Origin: Pirellulales bacterium
GTDB lineage: Bacteria; Planctomycetota; Planctomycetia; Pirellulales; JANQPP01
DNA length: 56,781 nucleotides
Direction: 5' to 3'
Assembly: GCA_028289405.1 (NCBI GenBank)
Contig: JANQPP010000062.1
Span: forward strand, 1-56,781
This document shows, in pieces, positions 44 through 9,100 of this stretch. The notes under the pieces were generated by a model that saw nothing but the letters and a program-made list of their open reading frames with translations, made no database searches and was not told the origin of the DNA. A program made the translations under genes and the position numbers. Numbering within the stretch: the first letter of the stretch is position 1; every line of letters starts with the position of its first letter.

Positions 44-132
44 GGAAGGTAGCCGGATACGGCTCGCCGGGCCGGTTTGCTAAACCGTGCGACTCCACAG
101 GGGTCATGTGGGTTCAAATCCCATGCCTTCCG
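44..132 (+). tRNA. tRNA-Ser(GCT)
   Basis: The acceptor strands GGAAGG and CCTTCC pair. The anticodon loop reads TTGCTAA with anticodon GCT, and a long variable arm (about 106-112 region) marks it as a class II tRNA. The discriminator is G, as expected for serine, and no CCA is encoded. It is a member of the tRNA array and is separated by about a dozen bases from its neighbours. Confidence 0.9.
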
Positions 133-143
133 CTTGACGGACA

Positions 144-217
144 TGGCTCGATGGTGAAACGGACATCATGTCTCGCTTCTAACGAGATGGTCCAGGTTCG
201 AATCCTGGTCGGGCCAC
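144..217 (+). tRNA. tRNA-Arg(TCT)
   Basis: Acceptor TGGCTCG pairs with CGGGCCA over seven positions (one G-T). The anticodon stem TCTCG/CGAGA closes the loop CTTCTAA, giving anticodon TCT. The T-loop is TTCGAAT. CCA is not encoded. It is a normal-order gene with the same anticodon as the permuted tRNA-like unit at 2918-3055. Confidence 0.92.
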
Positions 218-230
218 TGACTGAACAAAC

Positions 231-320
231 GGAAGGGCAACCCGATTGGCGACGGGACCCGGTTGGAAGCCGGTCGAGCATTTTCAAAACGCCTTGCGGG
301 TTCGACTCCCGCTCCTTCCG
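231..320 (+). tRNA. tRNA-Ser(GGA)
   Basis: Acceptor GGAAGGG pairs with TCCTTCC. The anticodon loop TTGGAAG gives GGA. A long variable arm (roughly 273-295) and a G discriminator fit class II serine tRNA. The base pair at the bottom of the anticodon stem is mismatched (C-T), so it is slightly degenerate. It is followed after 41 bases by the first protein gene of the array. Confidence 0.88.
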
Positions 321-361
321 CCTGTACTGAGGATCGTATTTCGTTTTCGGAGGACTAAACC

Positions 362-1159
362 ATGAACGCGCGCTTGATTGAACGACATTTCGCCAAGATC
401 GGTGCGCGCGCCAAGGTTCACCCGGAGTCGCGACGTGACCGAACCGGCGTGACGATCGACATCGGCCACGACGGTGAGGGCGAGTTCTTCGACATCGCAA
501 TGGCTCAGCCTCGGCTGGCCGAAGTGCGGGTCGTGGATACTCAGCCGCGGATTCGGCACCTGCTGCTGATGTCGGAACAGGAAGACGGTAAGCACAAGTT
601 CTTGTGCGGACACGACGAGCGGCACTGGTTCGTCGCAGCGGTACCGGAGCGAGCTTCGGTTTCGAACGTCAAGACGGCGTTCGAGGCTTTGAAGCCGGTG
701 ATTGTGCGTCAGCGCGAGGACCGGCTGAAGATCAAGTCGCGCAAGCGGAATCGCCGGCGCAACGAAGCGTTCATCCGTCAAGGTGAGTGGTTCTTCGTGC
801 CCGTGCCGGACTGGCTTCGCGTGGACGAGCGACTGATCTTCCGCAACGAGCCGATCGCACGTGGTGGCGGAAAGCCTCACATGTGCGAGGAACTGGTGCG
901 GCAGGGTGGTGAGCTGGTTTACGTCAGCCCGAAGCATCCGCAGGGTCTGACGGAGGCTCAGCACCGCCGGCTGATCAGCGCAAGCGCGAAGCTGCGAAAC
1001 CTACAGTGGGTCGTGCAGCGGCGCAACCCGCTGGTGTTCGTACGCGGAAGGGTGCGCCACGCCGATCACAAGACGATTGTCCTGGACGGCTGGCACCAGG
1101 TGCTGATGAACACCGAGACACAGTCGGTGGCCATGCGGCACGTGGCGTTTATTGACTGA
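362..1159 (+). CDS. Unrecognised 265-aa basic protein inside the tRNA array
   Basis: I do not recognise a family. The start ATG has a GGAGG box 8 bases upstream (349-353). The protein is soluble with no signal peptide or membrane segment. It has a strongly basic patch (KSRKRNRRRN, about residues 124-133) and many Arg/His residues, which would suit nucleic-acid binding, but that is inference. Cys82 and His residues do not form an obvious zinc motif. It sits between tRNA-Ser(GGA) and a His-like tRNA on the same strand with short spacers, so it is probably co-transcribed with the tRNAs. Codon use looks normal for the window, so it is likely a real gene rather than a chance frame. A function linked to tRNAs or to the Ro60 protein downstream is only a guess. 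Confidence 0.8.
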   Translation: MNARLIERHFAKIGARAKVHPESRRDRTGVTIDIGHDGEGEFFDIAMAQPRLAEVRVVDTQPRIRHLLLMSEQEDGKHKFLCGHDERHWFVAAVPERASVSNVKTAFEALKPVIVRQREDRLKIKSRKRNRRRNEAFIRQGEWFFVPVPDWLRVDERLIFRNEPIARGGGKPHMCEELVRQGGELVYVSPKHPQGLTEAQHRRLISASAKLRNLQWVVQRRNPLVFVRGRVRHADHKTIVLDGWHQVLMNTETQSVAMRHVAFID

Positions 1160-1209
1160 CAACTTCAACCTGGGCCGTCGCACTTCGGTGACGGCGGCCC
1201 ACATTTATG

Positions 1210-1282
1210 GTGTCCGTGGTGTACGTGGTAGGCACGCCTGCCTGTGAAGCAGGAGGTATGGGTTCGACTCCCTTCGGAACAG
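1210..1282 (+). tRNA. Divergent tRNA-His-like gene (anticodon GTG)
   Basis: The anticodon arm is perfect: stem CCTGC/GCAGG around loop CTGTGAA, anticodon GTG. The D-stem GTGT/GCAC and T-loop TTCGACT are present. The T-stem has one T-T mismatch, and the acceptor pairs only as TGT-CCG with CGG-(A)-ACA, with a bulged A. A G precedes position 1, as histidine tRNAs need, but the discriminator appears to be G rather than C. It may be a degenerate or specialised histidine tRNA, or a non-translating tRNA mimic. It is clearly less canonical than the other array members. Confidence 0.6.
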
Positions 1283-1298
1283 AGGAAAGGAATCGATC

Positions 1299-1895
1299 AT
1301 GGTAGTAACGATGCTGGAGCGGCCGGCGCTGGTGCTGAACCGCAACTGGCAGCCGGTGAACGTCGCCACCGTGGCGCGGGCACTGGTGCTGTTGTGGAAC
1401 GAGTCGGCGCGGGTCGTCGATCCGTCCGACTACCAGACCTACACCTGGGAGCACTGGTCGAAGCTGCGGCCCCGCGGCGACGAGCGGTTCATCCAGGCAG
1501 TGCGGTTTCGGCTGCGTGTGCCGGAAGTGATTACGCTGACCGACTACGACCGGTTGCCTTCTGCGGCCGTGTCGTTCAGCCGGCGGAACATTTTCAAGCG
1601 TGACCACTACATGTGCCAGTACTGCAGCCGGCAGCCCGGGAGCGAGGAACTGACGATCGACCACGTCGTGCCTCGGGCCCAGCTCGGTGAGTCGCGGTGG
1701 GACAACTGCGTGCTGGCCTGCCTGACGTGCAACAAGCGGAAGGCCGACCGCACGCCGGAGCAGGCTGGAATGCGACTGCGCAAGCAGCCGGTCCAGCCGA
1801 CGTGGAACCCGCTGTACGCGGCTCACGAGCTGCGGATTGAAAGCTGGTCGAAGTTCGTCAGCGAGGCGTACTGGACCGTCGAACTGGCGAAGTGA
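1299..1895 (+). CDS. HNH endonuclease
   Basis: A 198-aa protein whose middle (about residues 96-150) is a complete HNH nuclease fold. It has a CQYC pair, then LTIDHVVPR with the catalytic His in the DHV motif, then DNCVLACLTCNKRK, which supplies the second Cys pair for structural zinc and the downstream Asn/Lys. Such proteins nick or cleave DNA with one metal ion and are common in phages and mobile elements. The start ATG has a GAGGAAAGG box at 1283-1291. An ATG twelve bases downstream is also possible. It lies between the His-like tRNA and tRNA-Trp on the same strand. In this setting it may serve mobility or array rearrangement, or simply be a free-standing homing-type nuclease; the target is unknown. 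Confidence 0.92.
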   Translation: MVVTMLERPALVLNRNWQPVNVATVARALVLLWNESARVVDPSDYQTYTWEHWSKLRPRGDERFIQAVRFRLRVPEVITLTDYDRLPSAAVSFSRRNIFKRDHYMCQYCSRQPGSEELTIDHVVPRAQLGESRWDNCVLACLTCNKRKADRTPEQAGMRLRKQPVQPTWNPLYAAHELRIESWSKFVSEAYWTVELAK

Positions 1896-1944
1896 GAGGA
1901 CAACGATCGCTCCCGGTTCCAGTCGCCGGGGACTTTTTACCTTA

Positions 1945-2016
1945 CACGAGTGTGCTCCTGGGAGAGCAGCCAGCCTCCAAAACTGGCGGACGGGGTTCGA
2001 CTCCCCGCGCTCGTGC
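1945..2016 (+). tRNA. tRNA-Trp(CCA)
   Basis: Acceptor CACGAGT pairs with GCTCGTG. The anticodon loop is CTCCAAA with anticodon CCA, and the top pair of the anticodon stem is a C-A mismatch. The T-arm CGGGG-TTCGACT-CCCCG is perfect. Position 1 is C rather than the usual A or G, and the discriminator is C. It opens the main run of seven tRNAs. Confidence 0.85.
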
Positions 2017-2021
2017 TTGAT

Positions 2022-2095
2022 GCCGACGTGGCTCGATTGAGAAAGGCGCCGGTCTTGTAAACCGGTTGATGCTGGTGTGAATCCAGTCGTCGGCT
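2022..2095 (+). tRNA. tRNA-Thr(TGT)
   Basis: Acceptor GCCGACG pairs perfectly with CGTCGGC. Anticodon stem CCGGT/ACCGG closes loop CTTGTAA, anticodon TGT. The T-loop GTGAATC departs from the usual TTCRA (G in place of the first T), a mild degeneration. It begins five bases after tRNA-Trp, so processing must separate closely packed tRNAs. Confidence 0.86.
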
Positions 2096-2110
2096 CTGGA
2101 TGGGAAAGAC

Positions 2111-2182
2111 GTCCCGATGGTGTAACGGACAGCACAAGATCGTCCTAAGGTCTTGGCCCTGGTTCGAATCCAGGTCGGGACG
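2111..2182 (+). tRNA. tRNA-Arg(CCT)
   Basis: Acceptor GTCCCGA pairs with TCGGGAC. The anticodon stem AGATC/GGTCT closes loop GTCCTAA, anticodon CCT. T-arm CCTGG-TTCGAAT-CCAGG is perfect. It is the first of four consecutive arginine tRNAs. Its GTCCTAAGGT core is shared with RNA unit 2 at 2645-2654. Confidence 0.9.
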
Positions 2183-2202
2183 CTGGAATGAGAAGAAAAC
2201 AT

Positions 2203-2274
2203 GTCCCGGTGGTGTAGCGGATAGCATTGGACCCTCCGAAGGTCCAGGCCCTGGTTCAAGTCCAGGTCGGGATA
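2203..2274 (+). tRNA. tRNA-Arg(CCG)
   Basis: Acceptor GTCCCGG pairs with TCGGGAT through two G-T pairs. Anticodon stem GGACC/GGTCC closes loop CTCCGAA, anticodon CCG. T-arm CCTGG-TTCAAGT-CCAGG. It is closely similar to the preceding tRNA-Arg(CCT) in its acceptor and T-arm, suggesting tandem duplication followed by anticodon change. Confidence 0.9.
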
Positions 2275-2290
2275 CTAACTGATTGATTAC

Positions 2291-2362
2291 GCCCTGCGAG
2301 TGTGATGGACGGCATGGCAGACTTCGAATCTGCCGGACGAGGTTCGATTCCTCGGCGGGGTG
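2291..2362 (+). tRNA. tRNA-Arg(TCG)
   Basis: Acceptor GCCCTGC pairs with GCGGGGT, with G-T pairs at the end and in the middle. Anticodon stem GCAGA/TCTGC closes loop CTTCGAA, anticodon TCG. T-arm CGAGG-TTCGATT-CCTCG. The TCG anticodon is uncommon where ACG and CCG tRNAs already read CGN codons, which fits an accessory set rather than the core tRNA complement. Confidence 0.88.
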
Positions 2363-2375
2363 CTGAATAAACAAT

Positions 2376-2448
2376 GTCGCCGAAGTGTGCCGGATTCGCA
2401 CGCGAGCCCGCGAAGCTCGAAGATCAGGTTCGATTCCTGGCGGCGACA
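2376..2448 (+). tRNA. tRNA-Arg(GCG), unusual anticodon and C33
   Basis: Acceptor GTCGCCG pairs perfectly with CGGCGAC. Anticodon stem CGAGC/GCTCG closes loop CCGCGAA, giving anticodon GCG. Position 33 is C instead of the near-universal U. The D-stem GTGC/GCAC and T-arm TCAGG-TTCGATT-CCTGG are intact. Bacteria normally read CGC/CGU with an ACG (inosine) tRNA, so a GCG arginine tRNA is rare. C33 disturbs the U-turn, so decoding activity is uncertain. Confidence 0.82.
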
Positions 2449-2454
2449 CTTGAT

Positions 2455-2526
2455 GACGCTGGAGCCAGATGGCCAGGCGGCTGCCTGCAAAGCAGCTTCA
2501 AGTGGGTTCGAGTCCCACCGGCGTCT
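2455..2526 (+). tRNA. tRNA-Cys(GCA)
   Basis: Acceptor GACGCTG pairs with CGGCGTC. Anticodon stem GCTGC/GCAGC closes loop CTGCAAA, anticodon GCA. T-arm GTGGG-TTCGAGT-CCCAC is perfect. The discriminator is T, as expected for cysteine. It is the last canonical tRNA before the repeated RNA units, which begin six bases later. Confidence 0.92.
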
Positions 2527-2531
2527 CTGAC

Positions 2532-2607
2532 CGACCAACTGCCTGTTCGGACTACATCTTTTTGTGAAAGAGAACGGTGTCTGAGCTTCACCTTCGTTGG
2601 AAGGTCG
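2532..2607 (+). ncRNA. Repeated Y-RNA-like unit 1 (short, with anticodon-type hairpin)
   Basis: The terminal helix CCAAC (2535-2539) pairs with GTTGG (2596-2600), with CGA/TCG extending it beyond a bulge. The conserved 5' strand is ACTGCCTGTTCGGACTACAT; the conserved 3' strand ends CACCTTCGTTGG. The short core starts right after ACA with a 5-bp stem TCTTT/AGAGA around the 7-nt loop TTGTGAA, a histidine-type (GTG) anticodon arm. No acceptor or T-arm is visible. Read as a member of the six-unit family upstream of the Ro60 gene. Confidence 0.6.
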
Positions 2608-2615
2608 TAATACAA

Positions 2616-2785
2616 GCCCAACTGCCTGCTGGGAGTACATGACGGTCCTAAGGTAGCGATGCCGGGCGGCCGGCTTGTGAACGGCGCTGGAGTCTCTCGA
2701 AGACAAAGGCGCCAGTCGACGGTCGGCTTTTCGCCGATACGGACGACCGTAAGCTAACGCACGTCTTGGCTACCCTTCGTTGGGC
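2616..2785 (+). ncRNA. Repeated Y-RNA-like unit 2 (long core with an LSU-rRNA-like stretch)
   Basis: The terminal helix GCCCAAC (2616-2622) pairs perfectly with GTTGGGC (2779-2785). The 5' strand ACTGCCTGCTGGGAGTACAT and 3' strand CTACCCTTCGTTGGG are conserved. The 120-base core has several hairpins (for example GACGGTCG/CGACCGT at about 2718-2750 and GGCGC/GCGCC at 2683-2712). It does not fold as an obvious tRNA. It starts with an 18-base match to a universal large-subunit rRNA segment (2642-2659), part of which also resembles the tRNA-Arg(CCT) anticodon arm. Confidence 0.6.
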
Positions 2786-2796
2786 AATAACACAAC

Positions 2797-2907
2797 GGCG
2801 ACTGCCGGCTTGGAGTACATTGTTCGATTCCGAACGCCTCCGCTTGCGATCATTCCGGAGGCGGCGCTCACTTTGGGAGCGGGTAACTCTGACCAACCTT
2901 CGTCGCC
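2797..2907 (+). ncRNA. Repeated Y-RNA-like unit 3 (permuted tRNA mimic without anticodon arm)
   Basis: The terminal helix GGCGAC (2797-2802) pairs with GTCGCC (2902-2907). After the conserved GACTGCCGGCTTGGAGTACA strand come a T-loop TTCGATT (2823-2829) and a 3' acceptor strand CGCCTCC (2835-2841). A 15-base loop follows, then the 5' acceptor strand GGAGGCG (2857-2863), which pairs perfectly with it, and a D-arm GCTC-ACTTTGG-GAGC (2866-2880). The conserved ACTCTGACCAACCTTCGTCG strand closes the unit. The order acceptor-3' before acceptor-5' is circularly permuted, as in YrlA-type Y RNAs. The T-stem is poorly paired. Confidence 0.72.
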
Positions 2908-2917
2908 AACAATACAT

Positions 2918-3055
2918 GACCGACTGCCGATTGGAGTACATCGACTTCTAATCGAGAGGTTGTGGGTTCGAGTCCCACCGGCCTGGCTCACTGATTGAAC
3001 GGGCCGTAGCTCAAATGGACAGAGCGCTACGTCTCTGGTCAAAACTTCGTCGGTC
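2918..3055 (+). ncRNA. Repeated Y-RNA-like unit 4 containing a complete circularly permuted tRNA-Arg(TCT)
   Basis: The terminal helix GACCGAC (2918-2924) pairs perfectly with GTCGGTC (3049-3055). The core holds, in order: anticodon arm with loop CTTCTAA (2945-2951), variable loop, T-arm GTGGG-TTCGAGT-CCCAC (2962-2978), 3' acceptor strand (2979-2985), a 13-base spacer, 5' acceptor strand CGGGCCG (3000-3006), TA at positions 8-9, and D-arm GCTC/GAGC (3009-3025). The acceptor strands pair over seven positions. Joining 3000-3028 to 2942-2986 restores a 74-nt tRNA with a perfect CTCGA/TCGAG anticodon stem. See findings. Confidence 0.8.
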
Positions 3056-3089
3056 ACTGTTTTACGTTCGAATGATGGAGGGGCGAGCA

Positions 3090-3140
3090 ATGTGTGTTCG
3101 TGCGAATTACGTCGCGATGATGTTTGCGGGTGACGATTGA
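3090..3140 (+). CDS. Possible 16-codon leader/small peptide
   Basis: An ATG at 3090 is preceded by a strong GGAGGGG box (3077-3083) at six bases' spacing. It opens a 16-residue frame (MCVRANYVAMMFAGDD) ended by TGA at 3138-3140. It lies between RNA unit 4 and the 121-aa gene. The ribosome site is better than that of many real genes here, but nothing else supports translation. It could be a leader peptide for the gene starting at 3203 or a chance match. Confidence 0.3.
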   Translation: MCVRANYVAMMFAGDD

Positions 3141-3202
3141 TCGTCTCGCGCGATTCGTACGTTTACAACTCATCTCATTCCTTCAGCTTTCGAGCGTGAA
3201 AC

Positions 3203-3568
3203 ATGAAAGTTGCCACGCAACCAGAATTGGAGACAACCGTGGCGGCACGTATCGCGGGTGAAGACATCGCCTGCGGGGACTTTGTCGCCGTGATGAACGA
3301 GATCGTAGAACTTCCGTCATTCCTGTGGAACTGCTCGGGCGCTTCGCTTGCACCGGACGAACCCGTTCGTATCCGATACACAGCCAGCGACGCCGGCCAG
3401 CCCTATAAGGTGATTGGAGTATGCCTTCCCTTCGTCTACGCGAAGACAAAGCGTGGGCGCGTTGTCGTTATCGACACTCGACAGCGGCAGCTGGTCCGAC
3501 TTGACAAAGCCTGCGCCAGCGCGGTGTTTGAGAAGATGAAATCGCCTGCGAAGAAGGCGGGCAAATAG
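3203..3568 (+). CDS. Unrecognised 121-aa protein between the RNA units
   Basis: I do not recognise a family. The protein is soluble and has no signal peptide. Its central part (about residues 40-90) alternates hydrophobic and charged residues, as in a beta-rich fold (VRIRYTAS, YKVIGVCLPF, RVVVIDT). The C-terminus is lysine-rich (KMKSPAKKAGK), which suits RNA or DNA binding but proves nothing. No clear ribosome site precedes the ATG. The gene splits the repeated RNA units into a run of four upstream and two downstream, all on one strand with the TROVE gene. A role with the Ro60 protein and its RNAs is a reasonable inference from position only. Confidence 0.75.
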   Translation: MKVATQPELETTVAARIAGEDIACGDFVAVMNEIVELPSFLWNCSGASLAPDEPVRIRYTASDAGQPYKVIGVCLPFVYAKTKRGRVVVIDTRQRQLVRLDKACASAVFEKMKSPAKKAGK

Positions 3569-3577
3569 TAACGAACA

Positions 3578-3682
3578 CACTCGACTGCCGGTTCGGAGTA
3601 CATGGGATCTGCAAGTTCGACTCTTGCCCGGCCCGGTTGCAAAACAATCGGGCCGGATCTCTGGCCACCACTTCGTCGAGTG
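3578..3682 (+). ncRNA. Repeated Y-RNA-like unit 5 (acceptor/T-arm mimic)
   Basis: The terminal helix CACTCGAC (3578-3585) pairs perfectly with GTCGAGTG (3675-3682). The conserved strand TGCCGGTTCGGAGTACAT is followed by a T-arm GCAAG-TTCGACT-CTTGC (3611-3627). A 3' acceptor strand CCGGCCC (3628-3634) is joined by a small hairpin loop to the 5' strand GGGCCGG (3650-3656), making a 12-bp capped helix. The D and anticodon arms are absent. This is the clearest example of a tRNA-like module with a closed acceptor end, the layout reported for bacterial YrlA RNAs. Confidence 0.75.
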
Positions 3683-3691
3683 CCAATACTC

Positions 3692-3814
3692 GATCCGACT
3701 GCCGGTGTGGAGTACATCCACGAACCGATCTGAGGGAACACCTCGCCGGTAGCCACGGAAGTGGGAGCTTCCAGCGTCTCTGACGCGGCAACTCTGCCCA
3801 CCCTTCGTTGGATC
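3692..3814 (+). ncRNA. Repeated Y-RNA-like unit 6 (diverged core, next to the Ro60 gene)
   Basis: The terminal helix GATCCGAC (3692-3699) pairs with GTTGGATC (3807-3814) over eight positions, one G-T. The conserved strands TGCCGGTGTGGAGTACAT and CTCTGCCCACCCTTCGTTGG are present. The core has hairpins (GAGG/CCTC at about 3732-3743, GGAAG/CTTCC at 3758-3772, GCGTC/GACGC at 3774-3786) but no recognisable T-arm. It ends 23 bases before the TROVE start codon, so it may also act as the 5' leader of that mRNA. Confidence 0.6.
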
Positions 3815-3837
3815 ATTTTTGTTGAGAGGAGGTCACG

Positions 3838-5448
3838 ATGGCCAACACGACTTTGTTCTCCAGCATCAAGAGCAATCTGCCGCGCACGGACACTCGTAAC
3901 GAGGCGGGCGGCCGCGCGTACAAGTTCTCGCCCAAGCATGCGCTGGCGCAGATGGCGGCCACCGGCTGCTTCAACGGTGTCTACTACGCGAGCGCCCAGA
4001 GCCAGCTCGATGAGATGCGCAAGCTGATCGACCAGGTAGACGACAACACGTTCCTGGCCAAGCTGGCGGTTTACGCGCGCGAGCATGCCTACATGAAGGA
4101 CATGCCGGCAGCGCTGTTGGTCGTGCTGTCCAAGCGTGACACCGAGCTGATGCACCGCGTGTTTGGTCGCGTCGTCGACAACGGTCGCGTTCTGCGCACG
4201 ATGTTCCAGATGGTTCGATCGGGACAGTTCGGTCGCACTAGCCTGTCGTCGTCGCTGCAGCGAGCGTTCCAGCGCTGGCTGAACGAGGCGTCGGTCGGCA
4301 AGTTGCTTTCGGCATCCATCGGTAACGATCCGAGTCTGCGCGACGTACTGCGAATGGCTCGGCCGACGCCGAAGGACAACGAGCGGCGTGCGCTATTCGG
4401 TTGGCTGACGGACAAGGAGACCGACAAGTGGGCTCCGGCGACCGAGGCGGATCTGCCAGCGCAGGTTCAGGCGCTGATCGCGTACCGCAACGCCGATACG
4501 GCTGAGGCGCAGACGCTGATCGCGGGCGACCTGCAGGTTCGATGGGACCTGCTGGCCGACGCGGCCAAGGGTCCGCTCGTCTGGAAGGCGATTGCCCGAC
4601 AGATGCGACCGCAGGCACTGCGGATGAACCTCAACACACTGCTGCGTCACGAGGTTCTGGCTGATCGCGAGATGGTCGATTACGTCGCGGGCCGCCTAGC
4701 GGACGCCGACGAAATCCGTCGCTCGCGTCAGTTCCCGTACCAGTACCTGGCTGCGTACCTGAACGCTTCGGCGGAAGTTCCGCAGAAGATCAAGACGGCG
4801 CTACATCAGGCCGCCGAGATCGCTTGCGGTAACGTTCCAGAACTGCCGGGACCGGTCGTCATCGGCCTGGACACGTCCGGTTCGATGTCGATGCCAGCAA
4901 CCGGTTGGCGTGGCCGCGGTGCGACCACGAAGATGCGTTGCGTCGACGTGGCGGCTTTGTTCGCCGCGGCGATCCTGCGTCGCAACCCGGACAGCGTGGT
5001 TGTTCCGTTCGACACCCGCGCATACGACGTCCGCATCGATCCGAGCGACTCGATCCTGAGTCTATCGGAGCGGCTGGCGAAGTTCGGCGGCGGTGGAACG
5101 AACTGCTCGCTGCCGCTGCACCAGGCCAACACGAAGTTCAGCAAGCGAGCGTTCGCTGGCTGCGTACTGGTCAGCGACATGGAGAGCTGGGTTGGTACGG
5201 GCCGTTACGGCTCGACCGGCGTTATGACCGAGTGGCAGAAGTTCGTCAAGAACCAGCAGCGGCTCGGCGTCACAACCCCGAAGTTGGTCTGCATCGACAT
5301 CCAGCCTTATGGCTCGACGCAGGCTCCCGAGCGCCACGACATCCTGAACATCGGCGGCTTCAGTGACGCTGTGTTCAACGTTGTGGCCTCGTACCTGAGC
5401 GACGATGTCAATCGCTTTGTCAGTGAAGTCGAAGCAGTCGAGCTATAA
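3838..5448 (+). CDS. rsr: TROVE/vWA-domain RNA-binding protein (Ro60/Rsr orthologue)
   Basis: A 536-aa protein of the usual length for bacterial Ro60 (Rsr). Residues about 20-330 form the helical-repeat TROVE ring ([51 protein letters not shown]). Residues about 340-520 form a von Willebrand A domain with an intact MIDAS (GLDTSGSM, the GGGGTN loop and the VSDMES aspartate). Ro60 rings bind misfolded RNA ends in the cavity and Y RNAs on the outer surface; in Deinococcus a Y RNA tethers the ring to PNPase. The start has an ideal GAGGAGG box (3826-3832). Upstream lie six RNA units that look like Y RNAs, and the tRNA array. A terminator-like hairpin follows the gene. Family assignment is firm; partner RNAs are inferred from context. 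Confidence 0.97.
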
Positions 5449-5514: not shown

Positions 5515-5862
5515 CCATTCATGCTCGATCTGCCCATCGTGCGGTATCGGCAGCCTGATCCAGATTGGCATGTGATCGCTGACGTCATGTTCGAACTTTG
5601 AATAACGCCTCCACTTGGAGAAATTCAAGAGGGCGGGAAAAGCGTCGAAGAATAGTCGGACAAAATCAAACATCCCAAAATTAAAGCCGTGCCCAGCTGT
5701 ACCCCCGGCATGCCTATTGAGCTGCGGCGGCGGTAGCCGTCGGTCATCGGCAAAGAGAGCAATCTGATCGTAGGTTTGATCTTGGCGGGCATTGGCCCGG
5801 AAGACGGTTCCGAACGCTGGATGATCGTCAAGAAACGGGAAATTCACTTTCACCGGCGATCC
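5509..5862 (-). pseudogene. C-terminal remnant of an endonuclease/exonuclease/phosphatase family gene
   Basis: The last ~118 codons read as the C-terminal end of an EEP-fold phosphodiesterase: KVNFPFLDDHPAF, a conserved block around DQIALF, and the SDHMPIW motif that carries the catalytic Asp-His pair. The N-terminal catalytic half (metal-binding Asn and Glu, first His) is missing. The open frame continues to 6006, but the extra residues do not look like this family, so the gene seems cut at about 5862. It is one of several broken genes in this stretch. The remaining 300 bases up to 6170 hold nothing I can support. Confidence 0.7.
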
Positions 5863-6175
5863 TCTTAGTTGCCTAGTGGTCTGTTCAGCACCCGGCCGAG
5901 AAGCGATTTTCACAAGCTTTGCGATGACCCATCGAAGCCATTCGATAGAGTCCGAAAAGTCCTCTCGGACCGTCCACGCTGCAACGAACTCGGCAGCCGC
6001 AGTCAATCCGCGGAAGACGCCGTGCCGCGCTTTGGCAGAGAGCGCTTCATCACAAGCGAGGGCATTTCAACAGTAGCTTTGTCGCGGCATTGCGTGACGA
6101 TCCGTCTCGTCATCAAGCTCAAACCGACTGGGTTCCAATCGCGAAATTGACCCACTTATCCCCCCACAAATCAGT

Positions 6176-6869: not shown

Positions 6870-8315
6870 GGGTTTTGCTCGAGTGATCTCGGGCCAGTGT
6901 TGATCGAGTGATCGGTTGGGAGGCGCTCAGGCAGCGCCCGGAGCGAGGTCAAGTCGGCCCCCAAGGCTCCGAATGAGCGTAAAACACAACCCCCTCAGCA
7001 GCTTGCGGAAGTTGTATCCGACGGCGGCCAGTATGGCGTTGATGCGATCGCCTTCTTTCCCCGTGAGGTAGTGGCGATCCAATCGATGGTCTGACTTCAT
7101 GTGGCCGATGCTTGGCTCAATCGCCGAGCGACGACGCAGTAGCCGTTGTAATGCTCGCTTGGCTTTGCGAGGAATGTACCGCACCACGTGCACGTTGGCG
7201 CTTCCGTGTAGTTGTGACCTTGGTAGCCTTGACACACATCACGTCTTGCAGTTTCACGCCGGTCAATCGTTCCGCTTGCGAGATCGCGCCGGCCAGCGTG
7301 TGACCGTCATATGGATTGCCGTGTAATGCTTGTGCTCCCACGATCCAATTGTTCTTGCTGGTGGTGACGACACTCGCCTTGCAGCCAACTCATACCATTT
7401 GTGAGCTTTGCCTTTCGCAAGACACTCCACCTCTGGTGCGTGAATGCTGTAGAGCTTGTTCTTGCTGGTACGCATTTGAGCCCGCAAGCGATGAGCCCGC
7501 TGCAACAACTGCTGCAGATACTGTTGCTGCAGTGGACTACCATACTGTCCCGATTTTCGCTCGATGTCACGCACGACGCGGCCCAAGTAGGTCTTTAATT
7601 TGCGGGTCATGCGAGCGGCTCGTTTCATCTGTCGAGCGTGTGCGTAACGGGCTTGCTTGAACAATGCGCGCTTACCAACGAAACGATAGCTCTGTCGTAA
7701 AGGAATCCCCATCCTTTGCGCTTGACGGACCAGTGCAACACGCATCTTGTGATACAACCGAACATCGGTAGGAAAGGCAATCGCCTTCTCCTGCACCGTG
7801 CTATCCACGTTGACGCGTGTGGCTTGCGTGGGCTTGAGCATGCCCGTCTTCATAGCAACTTGGATCGTGACCTGCAGCATCTTTTCCAACCGCTCAGCAC
7901 CGACACGTTTACGCCATCGGCTCAGACTCGATGGATGGATGGGACATTCGTGTTGCATCTCGGTGAACCCGCAGAAGAACTGCCAATACGGATTCTTGAC
8001 CCATCTCGCGACAACCGCTTCATCGCTCTCATTGAACGCATGCTTCAGACAGAGCAAGCCGATCATCAGCCGCGTCGTGCAGCCAGGCCGTCCTTCTTCT
8101 GAGTAGCATTGATCCACCAAATCGTCGAACTGCGACCAGTCGATCTTTGATGACAAAATCACCAGCGGGTGATCTGGATCGAGGATCTTCTCCAGAGGGA
8201 AATTGAATAAACTTCGCTGCGAATCCGTGTTTTGGGGCTTCATTTTTTGCAAGCTTTCCGTAACTCGAGGAACGTTGCTTGCAAATTGTAGCGCGAAAGA
8301 ATCGAGCGCAAACCC
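6870..8315 (-). mobile_element. Decayed IS5-type insertion sequence
   Basis: The element carries one broken transposase frame (6927-8252). Imperfect terminal inverted repeats are suggested by GGGTTTTGCTCGAGTGAT at 6870-6887 and, on the other strand at 8315-8293, GGGTTTGCGCTCGATTCT. The ~1.45-kb span fits IS5 relatives. I could not confirm a target duplication. The copy is not autonomously active because the transposase has several frame breaks. It interrupts what was probably continuous tRNA-array DNA leading to ssrA. Confidence 0.6.
6927..8252 (-). pseudogene. IS5-family transposase with at least three frame breaks
   Basis: The N-terminal 300 residues are well kept: a DUF772-type domain with IGLLCLKHAFNESDE and WQFFCGFTE, the SLSRWRKRVGAE block, and the first DDE aspartate in RVNVDSTVQEKA. 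Near 7397 one base is missing after KAHKWYE. The family sequence resumes in another frame (NWIVGAQALHGNPYDGHTL, second catalytic Asp). Near 7220 a small deletion and another single-base loss follow. The C-terminal block is in a third frame (RRRSAIEPSIGHMKSDHRL, catalytic Glu). Joined, the frames would give roughly 440 residues, usual for the family. Confidence 0.9.
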
Positions 8316-8458: not shown

Positions 8459-8743
8459 GACAAACGCCGCCGAACTTGAAGAATCCCGGTCTCCGGAAGC
8501 AGCCGATTTCAAACCACTTCCATCGCGGGACTCACTTGGGATGTATCACGCGATTTCGAGACTCTTCGCCCAGTTCGAGACTTTCCGTACCGCCGGCGGT
8601 CACCACTCCGTCACGCGATTTGGGCAGGGGCAACAGTCGAACCGTCGCAAATCTCTATTATACGTGTACCCAATGAGCAAGGCCCACCAGCTTTCACTGA
8701 CGGGTCTTGGTTGAATCGAGACGGGTTGTGGCACCCGGCTGAG

Positions 8744-9100
8744 TGGAGGCGGCGGGAATCGAACCCGCGTCCCGCGACATCTCCATGCAAGCTTCTACGT
8801 GCGTAGTCGATTCTTTGATTTGGCCGGCACGCCCCCAATCGACAGGGTACGCGACGGTGAGCCAGGAACGAAGTTTAGTCCCGAACGTGCCCGGCATGGT
8901 TCAGGACGAGTCGGAATTAGGTGACCAGCTTTCGAGCCTCTCCGACAAAGGCTCTCAGCCGGGGACGCCTTTATTTAGGCGGCCAAAACAAAGTTTTCTT
9001 CGGCAATTGAAGAAAGCGGTCAGCTTTTTACGTGGCCCACTGACCAACCACGGCACGCCACTCCCACTTCTGATGGTCCGGTCGAATCCAATTCGCCCCC
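8744..9100 (-). ncRNA. ssrA: tmRNA (ssrA)
   Basis: The 357-nt one-piece tmRNA rescues stalled ribosomes and tags the nascent chain. The 5' end GGGGGCGAATTGGATTCGACC (9100 downward) and the 3' end with T-arm GCGGGTTCGATTCCCGC and CGCCTCCA (to 8744) pair as the tRNA-like acceptor. CCA is not encoded. The tag frame is at 9004-8975 and reads AEENFVLAA followed by TAA TAA-like stops, ending in the usual LAA degradation signal. The 3' end marks the border between the accessory region and housekeeping genes, as expected for an integration site. Confidence 0.96.

What the first reader, a model, noticed from the sequence alone, without database searches (positions are those of the whole stretch)
2532..3814. 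Six tandem RNA units with covarying terminal helices upstream of a Ro60 gene: candidate new Y-RNA array
Six segments share a 5' strand close to GAC-TGCCGG-TTGGAGTACAT and a 3' strand close to CTCTGACCAACCTTCGTC. Each is closed by a different but fully paired helix: CCAAC/GTTGG, GCCCAAC/GTTGGGC, GGCGAC/GTCGCC, GACCGAC/GTCGGTC, CACTCGAC/GTCGAGTG, GATCCGAC/GTTGGATC. Such compensatory changes are strong evidence for a selected RNA. The tandem spacers share AATAC-like sequence. The cores are tRNA-like, and the next gene is TROVE/vWA (Ro60), whose known partners are Y RNAs, some of which mimic tRNA (YrlA). Six diverse Y-RNA-like copies embedded in a tRNA array would be new to me. One puzzle: the bacterial Ro-binding motif I recall, GNCGAA(N)G, appears as the complement of the conserved CTTCGTC, so strand must be tested.
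Basis: partly seen in the sequence, partly recalled or inferred. Interest (0 to 1): 0.95.

Follow-up and report, generated by a model that had tools for sequence, protein, structure and literature searches.

The report
Ro60 adapter-RNA array mimicking tRNA, ribosome
Upstream of a Ro60 gene in a likely planctomycete genome lie six tandem sequences that share one paired stem but carry different heads, some resembling parts of tRNAs and one resembling a piece of 23S ribosomal RNA; they are likely small Y RNAs that would plug one ring-shaped protein into several different RNA-processing partners.

Summary
In detail: six + strand units (2528-3814), each closed by its own covarying helix, stand just upstream of a Ro60 (TROVE/vWA) gene; dinucleotide shuffles give 0.018 units on average. 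Rfam YrlA hits lie on + only: unit 4 46.8 bits (strong, yet below the 69-bit gate), units 3 and 5 about 21 bits (weak). The array is conserved: 229 units in 59 of 63 array-type Ro loci, whose Ro60 proteins form one branch (61 rows, support 100), seen so far only in the window's class. Their stems carry a C-G pair (CGAC-UGC / CUUC-GUCG) where rtc-operon Y RNAs, also present in this genome, carry A·G. Heads differ: unit 4 is a permuted tRNA, units 3 and 5 are tRNA-like in part, and unit 2 belongs to a class (23 descriptor-found units) that copies 23S rRNA at helix 69 and the helix 69-71 linker, followed by a helix 71-like hairpin; helix 69's strands appear in swapped order with compensatory changes. 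I saw no Y RNA with a 23S-mimic head in the paper listings and passages searched; the primary Y RNA papers were not held. Best reading: one Ro60 ring with interchangeable adapter RNAs. Transcription, Ro binding and partners are untested.

The parts
2528..2607 (+). Unit 1: short Y-RNA-like unit (class S), CCAAC/GTTGG helix 2535-2600 plus outward extension over a 2x2 mismatch
   Evidence: descriptor; class S in 31 of 59 loci; outer extension read by eye
2616..2785 (+). Unit 2: class R, Y-RNA-like unit with 23S rRNA-like head
2639..2659 (+). Segment of unit 2 matching 23S rRNA helix 69 3' strand and helix 69-71 linker (20 of 21 identical to TBK1r 23S)
   Evidence: helix names recalled
2661..2674 (+). 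Helix 71-like hairpin of unit 2 (GCCGG-GCGG-CCGGC)
   Evidence: (helix 4)
2745..2752 (+). GACCG-TAA: permuted 5' strand of the helix 69-like helix, pairs with 2643-2647 in the alignment consensus
   Evidence: alifold helix 3 of A1; partner test. The single-sequence minimum-energy fold of unit 2 does not form it
2797..2907 (+). Unit 3: Y-RNA-like unit with partial tRNA-like head (T loop, acceptor hairpin, D arm)
   Evidence: YrlA 21.8 bits, E 0.092, weak; no tRNA blast match printed for it
2917..3056 (+). Unit 4: YrlA-like unit, permuted tRNA head (T arm, acceptor hairpin, D arm)
   Evidence: YrlA 46.8 bits, E 5.4e-9; covariation; tRNA 3'-half match
3203..3568 (+). 121-aa ORF between units 4 and 5, no known family
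   Evidence: relatives in 5 other array-type loci of the 77 loci searched
3578..3682 (+). Unit 5: Y-RNA-like unit with T-arm plus acceptor minihelix head, no D arm
   Evidence: YrlA 20.6 bits, E 0.21, weak; tRNA 3'-half match
3692..3814 (+). Unit 6: Y-RNA-like unit, head of no recognised likeness (class V)
3838..5448 (+). Ro60 protein (TROVE + Ro60 vWA), array-type clade
   Evidence: Pfam; PDB Rsr 2nvo E 1.6e-18; tree
44..2527 (+). tRNA gene array upstream, with HNH endonuclease 1299-1895 and 265-aa ORF 362-1159

Best explanation
Six tandem + strand units with one shared paired stem and different heads stand upstream of a Ro60 gene, and they are likely Y RNAs that this Ro60 would bind by the shared stem while each head, some resembling parts of tRNAs and one resembling 23S rRNA around helix 69, would recruit a different RNA-processing partner. 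Shown by sequence: the units, their covariation, their conservation with one Ro60 clade, the YrlA likeness of unit 4 (weak for 3 and 5), and the 23S likeness of unit 2. Inferred: transcription and processing from the array, binding by the adjacent Ro60, and that the C-G signature gives specificity over the second, rtc-linked Ro60 of the same genome. Inferred by analogy with the published role of YrlA and DrY as tether and gate for PNPase: that tRNA-like heads dock PNPase or tRNA enzymes, and that the 23S-like head docks a factor that reads the 50S subunit interface (late 50S maturation, modification or quality control). The array would thus let one ring protein be plugged into several machines.
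For: YrlA model: unit 4 46.8 bits (E 5.4e-9) on +, no minus-strand YrlA hit. 59 of 63 array-type Ro loci carry C-signature units within 3.5 kb upstream: 229 on +, 1 on -. A scan blind to the signature base finds C/G in 229 of 274 hits at the 63 array-type loci, and A/G in 25 of 32 (13 same-class loci) and 32 of 44 (20 loci of other classes) at rtc-type Ro. Ro tree: 61 array proteins on one side of a branch, support 100, 33 rtc-type on the other (quick method). Array-type Ro in 49 of 297 genomes of the class (counted); the 24 matches outside the class are of the other type (37-49% identity). Covariation: class R 96.0% of cells paired against 82.1% in shuffles, 23 of 37 pairs with double change (14 sequences); unit 4 class 98.5% against 88.2%, 14 of 26 pairs (29 sequences); 0 of 500 shuffles reach these. 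23S likeness: 22 class R cores plus L051 score 14-24 at one 23S spot, sense; 185 other cores at most 12, antisense at most 12; a 34-base piece of the L044 unit matches 5375 of 5426 E. coli genomes, median 7 places, 23S rRNA in the three rows listed. tRNA likeness: 137 of 229 units match tRNAs in sense, 3 in antisense; in 52 of 52 units with both halves matched the 3' half comes first. YrlA tethers Rsr to PNPase (PMC8394870, passages).
Against: No transcript, binding or partner data. No YrlA hit reaches the 69-bit gathering score; the hits of units 3 and 5 (21.8, 20.6 bits) are weaker than the 25.9 bits that ordinary tRNA genes of the same genome give, and weak YrlA hits occur in 13 of 14 control genomes. 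No sigma-70-like promoter was found in 2400-3900. The 3' part of the class R head is not recognisable as 23S by sequence: in 22 of 23 the best score does not exceed the best of 40 shuffles, and the exception hits elsewhere; the permuted helix 69 rests on pairing (22 of 23 have a 5-bp partner, shuffled mean 9.2, maximum 16), and the minimum-energy fold of unit 2 alone does not show it. The structures tested were derived from the same alignments. 4 of 63 array-type loci gave no unit, and 37 of 59 loci had no class R unit (the descriptor misses some, e.g. L053). Units 1 and 6 have no assigned mimicry.
Confidence: 0.72

Rival explanations
1. The heads are decoys rather than docking sites: Ro60 would stabilise tRNA- and 23S-like baits that soak up anticodon nucleases or ribosome-cutting toxins, protecting real tRNAs and ribosomes.
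For: Heads keep parts of tRNA and of a 23S site that such enzymes could read; the array often sits in a tRNA array; [quoted passage not shown]
Against: The consensus fold of the unit 4 class has no full anticodon arm; [quoted passage not shown] a decoy does not need a Ro60 stem signature of its own.
Confidence: 0.15
2. The units are debris of the tRNA array (tRNA and rRNA pseudogenes) with chance stems.
For: They adjoin a tRNA array and contain tRNA-like and 23S-like pieces.
Against: Units in 59 of 63 loci, covarying stems and heads, fixed order of tRNA halves in 52 of 52, 0.018 units expected by chance.
Confidence: 0.03
3. The units are integron attC sites: GCCCAAC/GTTGGGC fits the recalled RYYYAAC/GTTRRRY core of attC, and the array would be a cassette array.
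For: Units 1 and 2 and several relatives end in AAC/GTT.
Against: Units 3-5 end GAC/GTC; the heads are conserved RNA folds with YrlA and 23S likeness; 106 of 170 spacers are 30 nt or shorter, leaving no room for cassettes there. Not tested: presence of an integron integrase in the genome.
Confidence: 0.02
4. The RNA strand is the minus strand, whose 5' GACGAAGG fits the recalled bacterial Ro motif.
For: The complement of units 3-5 reads GACGAAG; the minus strand of unit 2 folds with z -2.52 against -1.82 for +.
Against: No YrlA hit on minus; tRNA likeness is sense in 137 units and antisense in 3; 23S likeness is sense only; C-signature units within 3.5 kb upstream lie on the strand of Ro60 in 229 of 230 cases (the descriptor itself is strand-specific).
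Confidence: 0.02

Closest known systems
YrlA (Rfam RF02553), the tRNA-like Y RNA of rsr-yrlBA-rtcBA operons
   Same: Unit 4 and its class: paired ends, T arm, acceptor hairpin, D arm in that order, similar internal loop, Ro60 gene nearby.
   Different: Below the gathering score; C-G pair in place of A·G and an extra C on the 3' strand; upstream of Ro60, often in a tRNA array, not in an rtc operon; several different heads at most loci.
rtc-linked Y RNAs of the same genome (L038 10998-11676) and of other planctomycete rtc-type Ro loci
   Same: Same stem layout, with short, minihelix and YrlA-like heads.
   Different: A signature (GAAUGC / CUUGUC), mostly downstream of Ro60; in the own genome next to RtcB and RtcA; I saw no 23S-like head among those printed.
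Deinococcus radiodurans DrY RNA with Rsr and PNPase (RYPER)
   Same: Would work alike: RNA tether and gate between a Ro60 ring and a partner (PMC4726728 and PMC8394870, passages).
   Different: Tethers PNPase; no 23S-like head is mentioned in the passages that I read.
rRNA mimicry in gene regulation (title of a reference in PMC8058203; ribosomal-protein mRNA leaders recalled)
   Same: A regulatory RNA copies an rRNA site for a protein.
   Different: Recalled cases are mRNA leaders; here the mimic is the head of a Ro60-linked RNA unit, permuted around helix 69.

Membership tests
Rfam YrlA (RF02553) | score at or above the gathering cut-off of 69 bits | tested here: not met
   unit 4 46.8, unit 3 21.8, unit 5 20.6 bits; units 1, 2, 6 no hit up to E 10. 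The own genome's rtc locus reaches 68.7
Rfam YrlA (RF02553) | T arm, acceptor hairpin, D arm in that order between paired ends | tested here: met
   unit 4 and its class only; units 3 and 5 in part; units 1, 2, 6 not
bacterial Y RNAs (broad) | 5' and 3' ends paired in a stem with conserved internal loop | tested here: met
   229 units
   window units read CGAC-UGC or CAAC-UGC; the A to C change is systematic at array-type loci
bacterial Y RNAs (broad) | gene near a Ro60/Rsr gene | tested here: met
   one further array (L119) lies on another contig than the one Ro60 match of its genome
bacterial Y RNAs (broad) | binds Ro60 | not testable with these tools
   needs pull-down or gel shift
Ro60/Rsr proteins | TROVE ring plus vWA domain | tested here: met
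   Pfam TROVE 40.0 bits and vWA_Ro60 50.3 bits, both over cut-off; 2nvo Rsr E 1.6e-18
NCBIfam Rsr equivalog (NF041674) | score at or above the cut-off of 900 bits | tested here: not met
   77.8 bits
integron attC sites | RYYYAAC / GTTRRRY core (recalled) | tested here: not met
   units 3-5 end GAC/GTC

The most novel reading that the evidence does not exclude
A planctomycete-specific Ro60 clade runs a whole kit of up to nine interchangeable Y RNAs, often encoded beside tRNA arrays; one adapter is a circularly permuted mimic of the 23S rRNA helix 69-71 subunit interface, the first rRNA-mimic Y RNA, so that one Ro60 ring can be plugged into tRNA-reading and 50S-reading machines, kept apart from the cell's second Ro60 by a single A-to-C switch in the binding stem.
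Probability: 0.5. Interest if true: 0.93.

Novelty: new variant of a known kind. Interest (0 to 1): 0.86.

Why it matters
What bacterial Ro60 does beyond tethering PNPase is largely open. Here nature supplies a set of heads on one constant stem: each is a ready affinity bait for an unknown partner, and the 23S-like head names a ribosomal site (helix 69-71). The two Ro60 clades with A·G and C-G stems give a natural two-way specificity test. If true, Y RNAs are a general adapter platform and rRNA mimicry joins tRNA mimicry in it.

Tried and rejected
Rejected: minus-strand reading; attC sites; chance; the C11 YrlA hit of the own genome (25.9 bits), which by eye is ordinary tRNA genes. The own genome gave no 23S rRNA at E 1e-3, so the 23S of TBK1r was used. 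The 3' part of class R heads against 23S by sequence: not significant. A 128-base query of unit 2 in E. coli genomes gave no match, while the 34-base L044 piece did. An exact class R pattern in viral contigs gave 0. Phage Mx1, the best phage Ro60 hit, gave no unit by the scan, and Lysobacter L025 one hit of neither signature. Literature, listings only and capped: 'Y RNA' with 'planctomycet' 4 papers, none on Y RNAs by title; two or more of 'rRNA mimic', 'helix 69', 'Y RNA', 'Rsr', 'YrlA' 53 papers, 12 listed, none on a 23S-like Y RNA by title; further searches listed 20 of 76, 20 of 22, 20 of 50, 20 of 138 and 12 of 34 papers. Passages were read in PMC8394870, PMC12282133, PMC7790460, PMC4726728 and PMC8058203. 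The primary papers and reviews on bacterial Y RNAs that I asked for were not held, so I cannot exclude that planctomycete Y RNAs are described there. Not run: structure prediction, large protein searches, RNA model building, integrase search.

Dropped rows: array-type loci are the window, 44 of the 48 other array-type genomes (G156, G047, G155, G151 left out, short or broken) and 18 of the 28 loci (left out: 3 duplicates, Lysobacter L025 as another type, 6 partial or without upstream DNA); some of the 18 come from one assembly. rtc-type loci: 13 of 14 in the class, 20 of 24 outside. Alignment A1 used 14 of the 23 class R units found by the descriptor (L044, L049, L051, L052, L054, L066, L069, L070, L022 left out as divergent or bearing inserts); A2 used 29 of 44 listed units of the unit 4 class; 208 of 229 cores were long enough; 96 of 98 Ro proteins entered the tree (L084 with stops, L085 short). 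Some A1 rows are near copies (L056/L058, L046/L048, L017/L084), so cell counts are not independent events.
Full report
1. Observation. The six units exist at the stated place on the + strand, with the six quoted helices. 500 dinucleotide shuffles of 2528-3840 give 0.018 units on average, maximum 1. Between units 4 and 5 lies a 121-aa ORF; the last unit ends 23 bp before the Ro60 start codon. Upstream lies a tRNA array. No sigma-70-like promoter was found in 2400-3900.

2. Strand and family. Rfam YrlA hits lie on + only: unit 4 46.8 bits (E 5.4e-9), unit 3 21.8 (E 0.09), unit 5 20.6 (E 0.21), gathering score 69. The two weak hits alone would mean little: ordinary tRNA genes of this genome give 25.9 bits, and weak hits occur in 13 of 14 control genomes. 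In one search the YrlA consensus reads CgaAUGC on the 5' strand and AcUuGucG on the 3' strand; the window aligns with CGAC-UGC and ACUUC-GUCG.

3. Conservation. A scan of public genomes gave 28 loci encoding relatives of this Ro60, all but one (Lysobacter) from records titled as planctomycetes or their genera. In 297 genomes of the class, 61 have a relative at E 1e-20; by my count of that table 49 have the array type (best match 65-82% identical) and 14 the second type (43-48%), 2 of them, the own genome included, having both. In 392 genomes of the phylum the 24 matches from outside the class are 37-49% identical. Of 63 array-type loci, 59 carry C-signature units within 3.5 kb upstream: 229 on +, 1 on -; L001, L065, L082 and L085 gave none. 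Units per locus run from 1 to 9; median spacer 16 nt; a run of five T follows within 20 nt of 26 of 59 last units and 19 of 170 others. In one genome (G291) a further array, with class R and YrlA-like units by eye and no tRNA in the 13 kb fetched, lies on another contig than its Ro60 match.

4. Two Ro60 systems with two stem signatures. The own genome also has an rtc locus: RtcR, Ro60, four Y-RNA-like units with GAAUGC/CUUGUC, RtcB, RtcA. A scan that leaves the base before TGC open finds C/G in 229 of 274 hits at array-type loci (A/G 6), A/G in 25 of 32 at rtc-type loci of the class (C/G 2), and A/G in 32 of 44 at loci outside the class (C/G 3); antisense scans give 48, 14 and 17 hits with no leading type. 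The tree of 96 Ro proteins puts all 61 array-type rows on one side of a branch with support 100 and all 33 rtc-type rows on the other (quick method, root by midpoint). Position differs too: array units lie upstream of Ro60, A-signature units nearly always downstream.

5. Heads. Classification by motifs of 229 units: YrlA-like 71, other T-arm heads 55, short 32, class R 22 (23 with L051), two-hairpin or other mid-length 22, others 16, with Leu-like D arm 6, a further T-arm class 5. Blast against 541 tRNA genes of the loci: 137 of 229 units match in sense, 3 in antisense; in 52 of 52 units with both tRNA halves matched, the 3' half comes before the 5' half. Of the window's units, 4 and 5 matched a tRNA 3' half there; unit 3 did not. 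The unit 4 class pairs in 98.5% of cells against 88.2% shuffled, 14 of 26 pairs with changes on both sides (29 of 44 sequences).

6. Class R. Each of 23 class R cores has its best ungapped match to the TBK1r 23S within positions 1861-1887, sense: scores 14-24, against at most 12 for 185 other cores and at most 12 antisense. Identity over these 27 positions runs from 19 (L017) to 26 (L044), the window 20. In E. coli a 34-base piece of L044 matches 5375 of 5426 genomes, median 7 places; the three rows listed are 23S rRNA at 94-97%. By E. coli numbering (recalled) this is helix 69 and the linker to helix 71. A hairpin like helix 71 follows. RNAalifold on 14 sequences pairs CGGUC of the 5' part with GGCCG of the 3' part; 3 of the 5 pairs have changes on both sides and all cells pair. 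These are the two strands of helix 69 in swapped order, so the Ro stem enters at the helix 69 loop, as the Y stem of YrlA enters a permuted tRNA. A 5-bp partner exists in 22 of 23 cores (shuffled mean 9.2, maximum 16), followed by AA or NAA as in 23S in 14 (shuffled mean 0.9, maximum 4). Against this, the 3' part is not recognised by sequence, and the minimum-energy fold of unit 2 alone lacks that helix. A class R pattern hits 14 of 297 genomes, all 14 among the 49 with array-type Ro60 and none among the other 248.

7. Mechanism. Shown: conserved, covarying units tied to one Ro60 clade, with tRNA-like and 23S-like heads. Inferred: transcription, Ro binding, partner recruitment. The published tether and gate model (PMC8394870, PMC4726728, PMC8058203, passages) makes adapter function the most likely; decoy function is the main rival (PMC7790460, passages). 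Rsr takes part in 23S maturation in D. radiodurans (title of a cited paper in PMC4726728), which fits a 23S-like head.

8. Novelty. Several Y RNAs per locus and tRNA mimicry are known; a Ro60 clade with its own C-G stem signature, kits of up to nine heads, and a 23S-mimic head did not show in the listings and passages that I saw, which are capped; the primary Y RNA papers were not held.

Noticed in passing
L038 7369-14928 (own genome, contig C123): rtc operon with a second Ro60 and four Y-RNA-like units with the A signature, two of them YrlA-like at 68.7 and 66.3 bits.
   Followed up: yes
window 1299-1895 and 362-1159: HNH endonuclease and a 265-aa ORF of no known family inside the tRNA array; relatives in 14 and 4 other array-type loci of the 77 searched.
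   Followed up: partly
window 3203-3568: 121-aa ORF of no known family between units 4 and 5, with relatives in 5 other array-type loci.
   Followed up: partly
window 2941-2955 and alignment A2 at about columns 32-46: Heads of the unit 4 class hold a small hairpin with a 7-nt loop that often reads like an anticodon loop (in the window TCGA-CTTCTAA-TCGA); read by eye only.
   Followed up: no
L013 5939-6072, L056 unit at -1705, L095 unit at +1688: Heads that by eye resemble class II (Leu-type) tRNAs with a long variable arm.
   Followed up: no
L119 about 5640-6100: Array with class R and YrlA-like units and no tRNA gene in the 13 kb fetched, on another contig than that genome's array-type Ro60.
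   Followed up: partly
phage records: 371 phage records encode relatives of this TROVE protein; best Myxococcus phage Mx1, 39% identical.
   Followed up: partly
window 7263-8252 and 8743-9100, - strand: DUF772-type transposase ORF and a tmRNA gene (tag AEENFVLAA) downstream of the Ro60 gene.
   Followed up: no
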